Shown here in pieces: positions 50,459 through 57,542 of a stretch of 64,000 nucleotides of DNA. The stretch lies in the NCBI RefSeq assembly GCF_002999335.1, contig NW_020312089.1, forward strand, positions 1-64,000. The letters run 5' to 3'. Source of the DNA: Cyclospora cayetanensis (Eukaryota; Apicomplexa; Conoidasida; Eucoccidiorida; Eimeriidae). Both the position numbers and the translations under genes were made by a program. Under the pieces are notes generated by a model. It ran no database searches. It was not told the origin of the DNA and worked only from the letters and a program-made list of their open reading frames with translations. The stretch's first letter is position 1. Each line of letters opens with the position of its first letter.

Positions 50459-53400
50459 ATGCCCCCAGGCAGCTGCTTGGGGTTATTCCTGGCTGCCCTG
50501 TTGGTTTACTGTTCACATCCCAATGCCACAGCTTCAGCAGCGTGCCTGCTGCTTCCCTCAAAGAGAACTTCCTCTCTTTCTTTCCTGACCTCTTTTTCGC
50601 ACACATCAGACCGCTGCAGCGGCATCCCTGCATTCCGTTGCAGCACAAGTGGTGCTTCTGCACCGTCATGGTCACGCGGCAGAGCAGGGCACCCTTACAG
50701 CCATGCCTGTGGGCCTCCTTTTGCCAGCTGTTTTATATCACCCTCGCAGAAGCTAGAGAAGAGCCTTGGAAGGCACCGGAGGAACTGGAGTGTCTCCCTA
50801 TTGTCTCCTACGCCATCCGCTTACGCAAGTGCCACATCGGCAACATCCAGTGCTGCAACGTCAGCGAACCCTGCAACAGCGTCAGATGGGCTATGGGATG
50901 AATGCAGCAATCCACTTGTTGGTCAAGCCGACCGGTTCGTCCTCTTCGGAGACCTCCACGTCAGTGATGCGACGTTAGACACCTGTCTCGAGGCACTGGC
51001 CTTTGTACAGAAAACCTGCAAACGCCATAGCAGTGTCGTGCCCCTCCCCTCTGCAAACAAAGTGCATCGAGAAGCTGCAAAGCGTCGCTGCAAGGAAGCG
51101 ACCACGAAAATCCCATCTTCAAGGGGAAAGGCTCAACTGACGGCCAGCAGCACGCCGGCAGTCGCAGTTTTCCTAGGCGACTTTTGGCACTCCCGGGTAG
51201 AGCGGCACCTCCACTGGGGCGTTCTGAGGCCTGTCCTCGAATTTTGGAGACAATGGGATATCCCCGTGAGCTCACTCACATCCACCCTTTGGTGGCGATT
51301 TGTGCGCTTGACCTTTGCCTAAGTTCTTGGAAGTTGAATGAAGCCCGCATTTTTCGTGCTTTTTTGCGAGGCGTCTCTCGTTCGCACGCACTAAAAACAA
51401 GTAGAGCGGTGCCAGAAGTCACGTTATGCAGCAGTGTAGGCATATATAGCTATGACGTGCGCGTGTCATGCACCCTGGACAGACGCTGCTCCTGCCAGGA
51501 AATCACGACCAACTGCACTACGAGGAGGGGCGTGATCTGTTGCAACCCTTGGAGATAGCCGTTTCCCAGAGCCCTATGATACTGGCATTCCGAAGGCCCA
51601 CCCTCATCAACAAGGAGCTTCTCTTCCTGCCGCATATCCGTGGTGCCTCGAAGCTACAGCAGATCATGGCTCACGCCAAACAGGTAACGGATGAGCGACA
51701 TGCTAAGGGCTAGGTTCTTTGGCCTCTGCTACATCCTTCCTTTACGTGATCGCGTATAGCCACTAACGTGCTGCTGTAGCGGCTTCACCACGACAACTCC
51801 TTGTCTTTTCTTCTACGCTTTAGCTTGCGATAGTGAAGCTGGAGCGGCTGCTCTCGGCAAGGTGCAAGCATTCTTCCAGCAGCATCTGTCTTGTTGAATG
51901 AGGTGTGGGGTCCGTAGAGGGTGTACGGTTATGTGGTTCCGTGGGCTCTTGGAACTCTGCGTGTATGATTGTGTGTGTGTATGTGTATGCGTGTGTGTGT
52001 TTATGATTGTGTGTGTTTGTGATTGTGTGTGTATGGGTGTGTGTTTATGATTGTGTATGTGTGTGTGTTTATGATTGTGTATGTGTGTGTGTTTATGATT
52101 GTGTGTGTCTGTGGTTGTGTGTGTGTATGTATGTGTGTTGTTGGCTGTCAGTGCCAAACTCTGCGCGCCATGTTTGGCCACTTGAGTATCCGGGGAGCTA
52201 CGGTAAACCCTTACTCCGAAGAGGCAGGTGCCCTGATGAACGAGGGGATAGACCTTGAGCAGCTACCTAATGTGCCTCTGTACTCTGGTCATATTCACAC
52301 GGCGCAGCTGCTCGGGAAACAGGCACGATACGTGGGTTCGCTCTACCAGGTACGTCGCAGTAAAGGGGAGGTTATGACCTGGACAAAGAGAAGAACACAA
52401 CTGTTGCGGCTTTGTTGGTGGTTGCTTCACACTGTCGTAGCTGCTGTGATGCTCATGCAGACATCGCTGTCGGAGGCATACCAGCGAAAGTGCATCCACA
52501 CCATTTCAAGATCCGCAAACTTCGAGGTTGTGGAGATCGAGGAATCTCTAGTCGGTCCGCGGCACTTCCCAGTCAAGGACCCAATGCTCCTTCCCCCGCC
52601 ACATGCGCTCCGCAGGGGGGACAGAGTGGTGTTACTGCCCAAGACCACCTCAACAGCAGCGCCTTTGCCGTCCTCAGCTGAGGCTAGGGAAAGTGTGGTG
52701 CCTCCTGCCCTTGGTGGCTATTTAGCAGACCACTGTACTGCAACAGCACAGGCAGAATTGCATCGCGACTCGGTTCCTGTTGCGAGGCATTCACAGGCGT
52801 CAGCGCCTGAAATGTTTGCTCGCCCTAAGAGCCTCAACTCGAGCAACTGCATTGAGTCCAGCCTGCGCCCCGAGTCAAGTTGGATTGCGGGGACCACGTT
52901 CGAAAAACACCTCCTTGGTCGAAGCAACGAATTAGATGCAAAACAACTCTTGCGACTCTCAGAGGCCTACAGGCACGCCGGTAAGATTCGCTCTACCAGA
53001 TCAATGCCCACCACAAACAAGCGTGAGCAAGCCGGAGAGGGCGGGCATATAAAACACCAGACTCCCACGGCTCTCAAAAATGCATGTGATATGGGGTATG
53101 ACCTCACTTTGCCTCGCACCTCAGGTATCATCTTTGACTGCCGCGTGACTCCGACTGCCTCTTCCTGCGTAGTCTCCCGGCCGGAGGAGTCTCTTGAAGA
53201 AAGGGACGGTCGGAAGGACACAGCGCCGCTTGCCGCAGACAAAGCCAGTCCAACAACGGAGGCAGCTCTGGATGCATGCACTTCGTCTATGCCCCTCTCG
53301 AGGGCCTCTGAAGCGCCAGATCAACCTGTGCCAGCCTCTGTTGCGAATGCCTCCTTTCTTCCACCCAAAATCCATGCAAAGTCCTCTTTTGAGCTGCTCA

Positions 53401-56400: not shown

Positions 56401-57542
56401 CCACATTGGAAGCGGCCGAAGAGCTTTTGGGGCCTCAAGGAATTCAGCGACATCTACTTGCGTGAGCTGCCCGTGGCTCCAGGACCTATGCGTATACGTT
56501 CAGCGAGCAGAAAGTCACGCATTGAATGCTTCTGAGGATGCGCGAATGCGAGAGCAACCCTCCTAAGCTGCCAAAGCCTAACCGCGTCCCCCCACAAAAA
56601 GCACCAGGCCGGTCCTCGCTAGGGTTGCCTGCTTCAGATGCAAGTGCAGTCCCACCCGCTCGCTTGCTCCAGTTTGTTTAAAAAGACGCAATTATCAAGA
56701 GACTGTGAGAGCTTTGATTATGCGCAGGGCCGCGCTACGCCAGCTTGAGGAACAGACAAACATCTACCTGGAAGAGGCCAGCGGCGGACTCCTACGGCTC
56801 GATTTTGCGGCATCCAAAACGGCTCGCCTATCGAAGGTACTCAGTATACGCGGATCTGACGGCGCCTTCAGGCAAGCAAGCACGGTATTGCCACTGAGGT
56901 GCCGGTGCCCACTTAAGTCACAAAAATCCCAGCGTCTGGCTGCGCACCAAACGCTGAAAGACTTGCGTTCTGCGGCTCAGAGAAAGGACCATCCAGCAAG
57001 CCTCTAGTGGGCAACGCCAGCTACTTGGGTTGTGCCTATTCCTAGCGTTTGTTGTTACAATCAAGCGACGCTCTGGCCTGCGTTGTAATGTTTTGCTTCT
57101 CGACGAGCCGTTCTTGTCTCTCGACCCAATAAACACGTAGGCTCTCATCTTTCGCACCTCAAGGACGCCGGTCTGTGTACGCATTGGTGCAAGCACGGGG
57201 CATGTGCTTAAATCGTAGAACGATTACGATCGTGCGTACACCCTTAATGTGATGCGCTTTACACCTTGCCTGATGTGGGCGCCGCAGGCAGCGCATGCTG
57301 AAGCTGCTTAGAAGCCTTGTTAATGAGCCAAGGAGCTCCCAGCTAGCCGAGTTTGAGAGTTTATTTCTCGCTCAACACGTAAGCTGATGGACCCCCGAGC
57401 CGACGCACTATATACTGTTTGGTAGCTGATGAAGTGGGCTTTCCCACGCATGTCTACATAGGACCCAACAAATGCAAGGCTCTTCAAAAGCCACCATGGT
57501 AGTGCCGTTGCCGTTGGATCGCAGGCGTACAGCCTAAGCTAG
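50459..57542 (+). CDS. SbcD-SbcC (Mre11-Rad50-type) fusion nuclease with apicoplast-type leader
   Basis: Sixteen exons join in phase: 50459-51265, 51483-51683, 52152-52349, 52461-53508, 53737-53908, 54136-54248, 54579-54667, 54804-54948, 55157-55281, 55745-55899, 55992-56279, 56336-56461, 56728-56898, 56981-57136, 57288-57378, 57462-57542; 1321 residues. The leader is a signal peptide (GLFLAALLVYCSH) then Ser/Ala/Thr-rich sequence, the bipartite form used for the apicoplast. Metallophosphoesterase motifs: GDLHV (164), GDFWH (240), GNHD (275), GH (345), GHIH (382). After a low-complexity linker comes an SbcC/Rad50 ATPase: GLVLLEGKKKDS, Walker A TTNGAGKTT (about 842-850), signature ASSGQRQ (1220), Walker B LLLDE (1251-1255), D-loop SLD. 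SbcCD/Mre11-Rad50 trims DNA ends and hairpins. The arms are short and no Cys-x-x-Cys hook is seen. Walker A is split between two exons. Confidence 0.82.
51955..52140. repeat. (GT)n/TGTTTATGAT microsatellite in intron 2 of the fusion gene
   Basis: GTGTGTGTTTATGATTGT-type units lie between the 51683 donor and the 52152 acceptor. It is the only sizeable microsatellite in the otherwise repeat-poor 38-58 kb segment. Confidence 0.9.

What the first reader, a model, noticed from the sequence alone, without database searches (positions are those of the whole stretch)
50459..57542. One gene encodes both halves of an SbcCD/Mre11-Rad50-type nuclease
Seen: five metallophosphoesterase motifs in exons 1-3 and Walker A, signature, Walker B and D-loop in exons 6-14, joined by 16 exons whose phases all match and whose total length is a multiple of three. 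Known: SbcD/Mre11 and SbcC/Rad50 are normally separate subunits. Inference: a natural fusion fixes a 1:1 nuclease-ATPase stoichiometry. I do not know whether this fusion has been described in Apicomplexa.
Basis: partly seen in the sequence, partly recalled or inferred. Interest (0 to 1): 0.9.

Follow-up and report, generated by a model that had tools for sequence, protein, structure and literature searches.

The report
Parasite one-piece, armless SbcCD nuclease
A coccidian parasite gene joins both halves of a DNA-trimming machine into one protein that has lost its long arms; such fusions are known in some algae, but here the protein may serve the parasite's relict plastid, which carries the kind of mirror-image DNA such machines cut.

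Summary
The window is Cyclospora cayetanensis. One gene, 50459-57724 (+), encodes an SbcD/Mre11-like nuclease plus an SbcC/Rad50-like ABC ATPase: 18 exons, 1283 residues. The fusion recurs in three Eimeria species, diatoms and brown algae. It is not nuclear Mre11-Rad50, encoded separately here, but phage-type SbcDC: phage SbcC and SbcD are its best PHROG families, it shares their extended P-loop, and it groups with algal fusions beside an unfused phage sbcD-sbcC pair. Such fusions were described in 2011 (PMC3175470); that text mentions no apicomplexan, plastid or chloroplast. New here: presence in coccidia, loss of coiled-coil arms and zinc hook, and a leader-like N-terminus. This species' apicoplast DNA holds two 5,244-bp inverted repeats 33 bp apart (PMC4495940), a plausible but untested substrate. 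Localisation and activity are inferred.

The parts
50459..57724 (+). Whole fused SbcD-SbcC-like gene, 18 exons, 1283 residues (corrected model)
   Evidence: conserved in Eimeria P0003-P0005
50459..50893 (+). N-terminal leader: signal-peptide-like hydrophobic stretch MPPGSCLGLFLAALLVYC, then a basic, Ser/Thr-rich, acid-poor stretch (residues 1-145); possible apicoplast bipartite leader
   Evidence: best hydrophobic window reached in 1.3% of 20000 shuffles; residues 28-145 hold 11 K/R, 3 D/E, 37 S/T of 118. No predictor or experiment available
50459..51265 (+). Exon 1, with MPE motifs DxH (D165, H167) and GDFWH (240-244)
   Evidence: equivalents of D165, H167, G240, D241, F242 and H244 invariant in the 26 rows of A3
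51483..51683 (+). Exon 2, with MPE motif GNHD (275-278)
   Evidence: equivalents invariant in the 26 rows of A3
52152..52349 (+). Exon 3, with H346 and GHIH (382-385)
   Evidence: equivalents of H346, G382, H383 and H385 invariant in the 26 rows of A3
52461..52980 (+). Exon 4, end of nuclease/capping region and poorly conserved linker (30-32% identity to Eimeria for residues 446-660)
52981..53124 (+).
53125..53508 (+). Exon 5, linker
53737..53908 (+). Exon 6, part of a probable helix pair corresponding to the Rad50-binding helix-loop-helix of SbcD/Mre11, then start of ABC N-lobe
   Evidence: helices 525-539 and 546-565 in the model of the E. mitis relative
54136..54248 (+). Exon 7, extended P-loop (EGKKKDSTRGKRPGELFTTNGAG)
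54579..54667 (+). Exon 8, rest of Walker A (GKTT); the motif is split by a phase-1 intron
54804..55899 (+). Exons 9-12 (54804-54948, 55157-55281, 55398-55502, 55781-55899): ABC N-lobe, SQG at 938-940, first short helix
55992..56461 (+). Exons 13-14 (55992-56279, 56390-56461): loop without a hook and second short helix; 628 bp in all between PLDIW (55802) and GPQGIQ (56430) leave no room for a long coil
56728..56871 (+). Exon 15, followed by a GC-AG intron (56872-56980)
56981..57136 (+). Exon 16: ABC signature ASSGQ (57000-57014), Walker B VLLLDEP and D-loop LSLD (57090-57125)
57288..57378 (+). Exon 17: end of C-lobe, H-loop candidate LAQH
57602..57724 (+).
   Evidence: 57617-57709 matches the Eimeria praecox C-terminus, 74% over 31 residues

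Best explanation
The gene encodes one polypeptide that is a phage-type SbcDC nuclease: a metallophosphoesterase with SbcD/Mre11 fold and capping domain, a linker with a helix pair, and an SMC/Rad50-type ABC ATPase in two lobes. Shown by sequence: both catalytic halves with intact motifs in one gene, conservation in Eimeria, common descent with the fused proteins of diatoms and brown algae and with phage SbcD-SbcC pairs, and absence of the long coiled-coil arms and CxxC hook in coccidia. Inferred: two copies dimerise through the ABC heads and nuclease domains, ATP holds the nuclease away from DNA, and hydrolysis lets it cut at DNA ends and hairpins, as in E. coli SbcCD; with only coil stubs of about 40-50 residues it should act as a compact end/hairpin nuclease that cannot tether distant DNA. 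Inferred more weakly: the protein is sent to the apicoplast and processes ends or hairpins of apicoplast DNA, whose two 5.2-kb rRNA inverted repeats, 33 bp apart in Cyclospora, form a near-perfect 10.5-kb palindrome.
Against: No transcript, protein, activity or localisation data for the coccidian gene. The leader rests on composition only; the Eimeria models do not show a comparable N-terminus. Of 49 proteins with a possible complete start, 26 had no strong hydrophobic N-terminal stretch, and diatom plastid inverted repeats are not contiguous palindromes (recalled), so a palindrome role cannot be general. No row named as Toxoplasma, Plasmodium, Vitrella or Chromera appeared or among the 120 listed (many of those have no name), although some of these also have apicoplast inverted repeats (recalled); a link of gene and palindrome is unproven. 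Slime moulds, without plastids (recalled), also have such a fusion (PMC3175470). E. coli SbcCD is thought to use its coiled coils in sensing DNA ends (recalled), so an armless version might behave differently or be inactive.
Confidence: 0.6

Rival explanations
1. The fused SbcDC is real and active but works in the nucleus, cytosol or mitochondrion; the N-terminal hydrophobic stretch is an artefact of a wrong start exon.
For: P0001 and P0002 choose other upstream exons; 26 of 49 relatives with a possible complete start show no strong signal-like stretch.
Against: In the ORF that holds exon 1 (open from 50135) the ATG at 50459 is the first in-frame ATG, and what follows looks like a signal peptide plus a basic, acid-poor region. 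Separate nuclear-type Mre11 and Rad50 pieces exist.
Confidence: 0.28
2. Two neighbouring genes, an SbcD-like and an SbcC-like, are mis-joined by gene models.
For: No transcript evidence in Cyclospora; low conservation of the linker (30-32%); every annotated coccidian model is incomplete.
Against: Joined models in C. cayetanensis and three Eimeria species and in algal proteins with the same order, two of them named as complete MMETSP transcripts (P0045, P0094); one continuous spliced frame through the junction.
Confidence: 0.04
3. A decaying or purely structural relic: loss of arms and hook has made the nuclease inactive.
For: Loss of coil and hook; unusual P-loop without the usual A/G five residues before the G of GK.
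Against: Metal ligands and ABC catalytic motifs kept; catalytic parts are about twice as conserved as the linker between Cyclospora and Eimeria; the odd P-loop is shared with phage and algal relatives whose other motifs look intact.
Confidence: 0.08

Closest known systems
Mre11/Rad50 (SbcD/SbcC) fusion proteins of Yoshida, Claverie and Ogata 2011 (PMC3175470): Mimivirus R555, Phaeodactylum, Micromonas, Physcomitrella, Dictyostelium, Clostridium kluyveri plasmid and others
   Same: One polypeptide, nuclease first then ATPase; GDxxH instead of GDxxD as in R555; in most cellular hosts it coexists with ordinary separate Mre11/Rad50; placed outside the canonical clades
   Different: No apicomplexan and no plastid or chloroplast is mentioned in that main text; the coccidian protein lacks the long coil and hook. 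None of those sequences was compared directly here
Fused SbcDC of ochrophyte algae (diatoms, brown algae; e.g. Thalassiosira profunda P0007, Ectocarpus P0117)
   Same: Closest relatives found outside coccidia; sister group in the tree (SH-aLRT 97.6); same order, same kind of extended P-loop
   Different: 521-572 residues between Walker A and signature with a CxxC hook, against 367 and no CxxC in Cyclospora; coil span about 360 against 136-145 residues
Phage SbcD/SbcC pairs (phrog_100/phrog_77; e.g. viral contig L026, whose two genes overlap by ATGA)
   Same: Same gene order, extended P-loop, sequence similarity
   Different: Separate frames in 32 of 47 viral loci where both were found; CxxC in 32 of 33 SbcC-type frames
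E. coli SbcCD
   Different: Separate subunits, P-loop GPTGAGKT, CPLC hook

Membership tests
SbcD/Mre11 nuclease | Five metal-binding MPE motifs | tested here: met
   invariant equivalents in A3, 26 rows
SbcD/Mre11 nuclease | SbcD/Mre11 fold with capping domain | tested here: met
SbcD/Mre11 nuclease | Helix-loop-helix that binds the Rad50 coil root | tested here: inconclusive
   Two helices predicted in P0004 at 525-539 and 546-565; binding not tested
SbcC/Rad50 ATPase | Walker A, signature, Walker B, D-loop in bipartite ABC head | tested here: met
   Pfam on the model before correction: SbcC_Walker_B 29.2 against cut-off 27 bits, AAA_21 37.7 against 27, AAA_23 below its cut-off; phrog_77
SbcC/Rad50 ATPase | Long coiled coil with CxxC zinc hook | tested here: not met
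   No CxxC in the protein; about 145 residues between lobe markers, 628 bp of genomic DNA in all
Phage-type SbcDC lineage | Phage SbcC/SbcD profiles as best PHROG families, extended P-loop | tested here: met
Phage-type SbcDC lineage | Groups with algal fusions and a phage pair, away from E. coli SbcDC | tested here: met
   Quick tree of 45 rows, 938 columns: coccidia with ochrophytes 97.6 SH-aLRT, L026 next 99; a tree holding ochrophytes and L026 together without coccidia has p-AU 0.0108 (group named after the tree was seen). Long coccidian branch; one canonical row only
Nuclear eukaryotic Mre11/Rad50 | Match to Mre11_DNA_bind or to the eukaryotic mre11/rad50 profiles | tested here: not met
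   Not among the 7 Pfam families at E<=1 nor in the NCBIfam rows for P0002 and P0004 (all listed) and P0003 (25 of 36 listed); genome pieces matching these profiles lie on C101 and C41
Apicoplast-targeted protein | Bipartite signal plus transit peptide | tested here: inconclusive
   Hydrophobicity and composition only
Apicoplast-targeted protein | Localisation in the organelle | not testable with these tools
   Needs tagging or proteomics
SbcCD nuclease | ATP-dependent end and hairpin cleavage | not testable with these tools
   Needs purified protein

The most novel reading that the evidence does not exclude
Coccidia carry a one-piece SbcCD of ultimate phage origin, shared with plastid-bearing algae, that has shed its coiled-coil arms and zinc hook and works in the relict plastid, where it cuts hairpins or ends formed at the 10.5-kb near-palindrome of the rRNA inverted repeats. 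It would be a natural test of whether SbcCD/Mre11-Rad50 needs its arms at all, and a phage-derived part of plastid DNA maintenance comparable to other phage-like organelle enzymes.
Probability: 0.33. Interest if true: 0.78.

Novelty: new variant of a known kind. Interest (0 to 1): 0.55.

Why it matters
Mre11-Rad50/SbcCD is near-universal, and its arms and zinc hook are widely held to be central to how it senses and tethers DNA (recalled). A conserved one-piece version with intact motifs but no arms gives a natural minimal machine to test that. The 2011 paper explained close homologs in moss, diatom and green algae by transfers 'via unidentified intermediates' (PMC3175470); those hosts have plastids, and coccidia keep a relict one (recalled), so a shared plastid role is a concrete, testable alternative for this group. 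If apicoplast-located, it would be a candidate factor for apicoplast DNA upkeep of an architecture not known from humans (recalled, not searched).

Tried and rejected
Rejected: fusion of the parasite's own Mre11 and Rad50 (pieces of both found elsewhere; profiles do not match). Those genome matches are exon pieces, below the full-length cut-offs of the mre11 and rad50 profiles, and one piece of each has a stop codon inside the matched stretch; only PF04152 passed its cut-off. Rejected: two mis-joined genes. Rejected: a coil hidden in unannotated exons of Cyclospora: 628 bp lie between the lobe markers; CxxC pairs in another frame there are interrupted by stops and are not in the frame conserved with Eimeria.

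Led nowhere or inconclusive: the genome-contig scan with A3 gave one weak Chloroflexi locus, L073, from 114 candidate stretches, so bacterial relatives other than E. coli are not in the tree. P0007 against annotated phages: 801 records with a match, none covering 80% of the query; the best, Pseudomonas phage QdP_Psa3, covers 71% over an exonuclease and an SbcD-like gene. Search for plastid rRNA in the window's own genome, to read the inverted repeats directly, did not complete; the 33-bp spacer comes from a paper. No Toxoplasma, Plasmodium or chromerid relative was seen, but searches scored only the 7983 and 7997 candidates sharing most words, length limits applied, and one search listed 120 of 246 rows, many unnamed: absence is not shown. 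ASAFAP-like motifs (motif recalled) after a hydrophobic N-terminal stretch: 8 of 49 against 1.9% in shuffles with the first definition (the set of 50 there includes the Cyclospora model, which lacks the motif), 16 of 49 against 7.7% with a wider, post hoc one; suggestive only. Coil spans were read for 10 proteins or 25: three gave 357-364, two gave 866 and 593 because the pattern matched elsewhere, five gave none. The CxxC strings printed were offset by a script error; one search replaces them. The VIA-align list is filled by the nuclease domain; the ABC half was not modelled alone, and P0004 lacks exons there.

Literature searches for prior description; for the apicoplast DNA side. PMC3175470: parts 1-3 of 5 read, plus a term search of the main text. 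PMC4853372 (Toxoplasma Mre11 and RAD50, no fusion in the passages seen) and PMC4495940: passages only. All others: search listing only.
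Full report
WHAT IS THERE. The window is from Cyclospora cayetanensis: two annotated proteins of that species, P0001 ('smc domain-containing protein') and P0002 (LOC34620864), match the translated exons and are letter-identical with them over long stretches of the alignment. The gene runs on the + strand from 50459. I rebuilt it from splice signals (17 exons, 1317 residues) and corrected it against Eimeria and the annotated models: 18 exons, 50459-57724, 1283 residues. One intron, 56872-56980, has a GC donor; P0001 runs into it and ends, and the three Eimeria models skip the exon before it. 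Neither annotated Cyclospora model is complete: P0001 lacks signature and Walker B, P0002 lacks exon 12 and ends after the D-loop.

RELATIVES. One search found the two Cyclospora models, Eimeria praecox, mitis and brunetti, and a weak bacterial SMC ATPase, P0006. A profile of the coccidian proteins then reached a diatom protein, P0007 of Thalassiosira profunda, 1315 residues, E 2.6e-61. The nuclease half of P0007 drew 246 proteins at E<=0.01 among 3635 candidates of suitable length, 120 listed; the organism names shown are diatoms and brown algae (many rows have no name), and several JGI names read 'SbcCD ATPase subunit/SbcCD nuclease subunit'. P0045 and P0094 are named as complete MMETSP transcripts, so by their names the fusion sits on one mRNA there; the transcripts were not inspected.

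ORIGIN. The best PHROG families are the SbcC-like phrog_77 and the SbcD-like phrog_100 (P0002: 1.1e-20 and 9.4e-11; P0007: 1.8e-57 and 5.6e-20). A scan of viral contigs found 47 loci. By my patterns 32 of 47 hold both an SbcD- and an SbcC-type frame on one strand, 12 only the first, one only the second, and two, L027 and L030, a one-piece protein. In L026, the nearest, coordinates give an ATGA overlap of the two genes. A shared oddity marks the group: E. coli SbcC has GPTGAGKT, whereas the P-loop of phage, algal and coccidian proteins is longer by about 8 to 16 residues (counted by eye), as in RGENRDDGGSGSNGAGKT (L026), RGTNEDHGSDSNGAGKS (P0007) and EGKKKDSTRGKRPGELFTTNGAGKT (Cyclospora); this holds for 41 of 41 tree rows that show the NGxGK site, of 45 rows. 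The one-piece viral L027 and L030 do not show it. In a tree of 45 rows and 938 columns coccidia and ochrophytes are sisters (SH-aLRT 97.6) with L026 next (99); a tree that holds ochrophytes with L026 and leaves coccidia out has p-AU 0.0108, a group chosen after the tree was seen. It is a quick tree with a long coccidian branch, one canonical row, and no green algae, moss, Mimivirus or bacterial fusions, so it shows affinity among what was sampled, not the full history. The genome also has exon pieces of ordinary Mre11 (C101) and Rad50 (C41), so the fusion is an addition, as Yoshida and colleagues found for cellular hosts other than Deferribacter.

WHAT IS ODD. In 79 of 82 proteins that could be scanned a CxxC, mostly followed by xQ, lies between the lobes; the three without are P0002, P0005 and my model, all coccidian, two of them the same gene (44 of 126 not scannable). 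From Walker A to signature the 79 have 521-572 residues, the Cyclospora model 367. Between the markers PLDxW and GPxGIQ three algal proteins have 357-364 residues, the Cyclospora model and E. praecox 145, E. mitis 136. In Cyclospora the whole genomic stretch is 628 bp, so no gene model can restore arms of that size. The structure model shows two helices of 47 and 38 residues and a disordered loop in place of arms and hook. This is an SbcCD reduced to its heads.

WHERE IT MAY WORK. The first in-frame ATG of the ORF that holds exon 1 gives MPPGSCLGLFLAALLVYC..., a signal-peptide-like start (1.3% of 20000 shuffles as hydrophobic), followed by 118 residues with 11 K/R, 3 D/E and 37 S/T. That is how apicoplast leaders look (recalled), but no predictor was at hand. 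Of 49 proteins with a possible complete start, 23 have a strong hydrophobic N-terminus (24 of 50 with the Cyclospora model; 12% in shuffles), and P0007 and others continue with ASSF-type residues like the diatom plastid motif (recalled); 26 of 49 do not. The Cyclospora apicoplast genome has two 5,244-bp inverted repeats, differing by eight nucleotides, with 33 bp between their nearer ends; PCR across them failed (PMC4495940, passages): a 10.5-kb near-palindrome, the class of DNA that SbcCD cuts in bacteria (recalled).

MECHANISM. Shown: architecture, motifs, ancestry within the sample, loss of arms. Inferred from SbcCD/Mre11-Rad50: ATP-driven dimerisation of heads and cutting at ends and hairpins. 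Speculative: service at the apicoplast palindrome.

KNOWN AND NEW. Mre11/Rad50 fusions were reported in 2011 in Mimivirus and twelve other cases; a eukaryotic moss-diatom-prasinophyte group had 91% bootstrap; viral origin and operon fusion were proposed. The main text holds no mention of apicomplexans, Toxoplasma, Eimeria, plastids or chloroplasts. None of my searches listed a paper that by title or abstract start treats this fusion in Apicomplexa; the library is open-access only. So the finding is a new variant of a known kind.

CHANGES AFTER RE-CHECKING.

Noticed in passing
51961-52139: Long TG/TTTATGATT-rich repeat array inside intron 2 of the gene (TRF score 186), ending just before the exon 3 acceptor.
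   Followed up: no
L027 2824-5919 and L030 2983-5907: Two viral contigs carry one-piece SbcDC proteins without the extended P-loop of the algal/coccidian type; in the tree they pair together, apart from the algal/coccidian fusions.
   Followed up: partly
21003-21989 (-): ORF with a weak FAST-kinase-like match (PF06743, E 8.6e-4, below cut-off).
   Followed up: no
46288-47157 (+): ORF with tetratricopeptide repeats (TPR_2, E 1.6e-9).
   Followed up: no
30227-36796 (+): A 2190-residue open frame with no Pfam match at E<=0.001, overlapping several CAG/CAA-type tandem repeats.
   Followed up: no
P0001, P0002 (annotated C. cayetanensis proteins): Both annotated models of this gene are incomplete; the GC-AG intron at 56872-56980 seems to be one cause for P0001.
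   Followed up: yes
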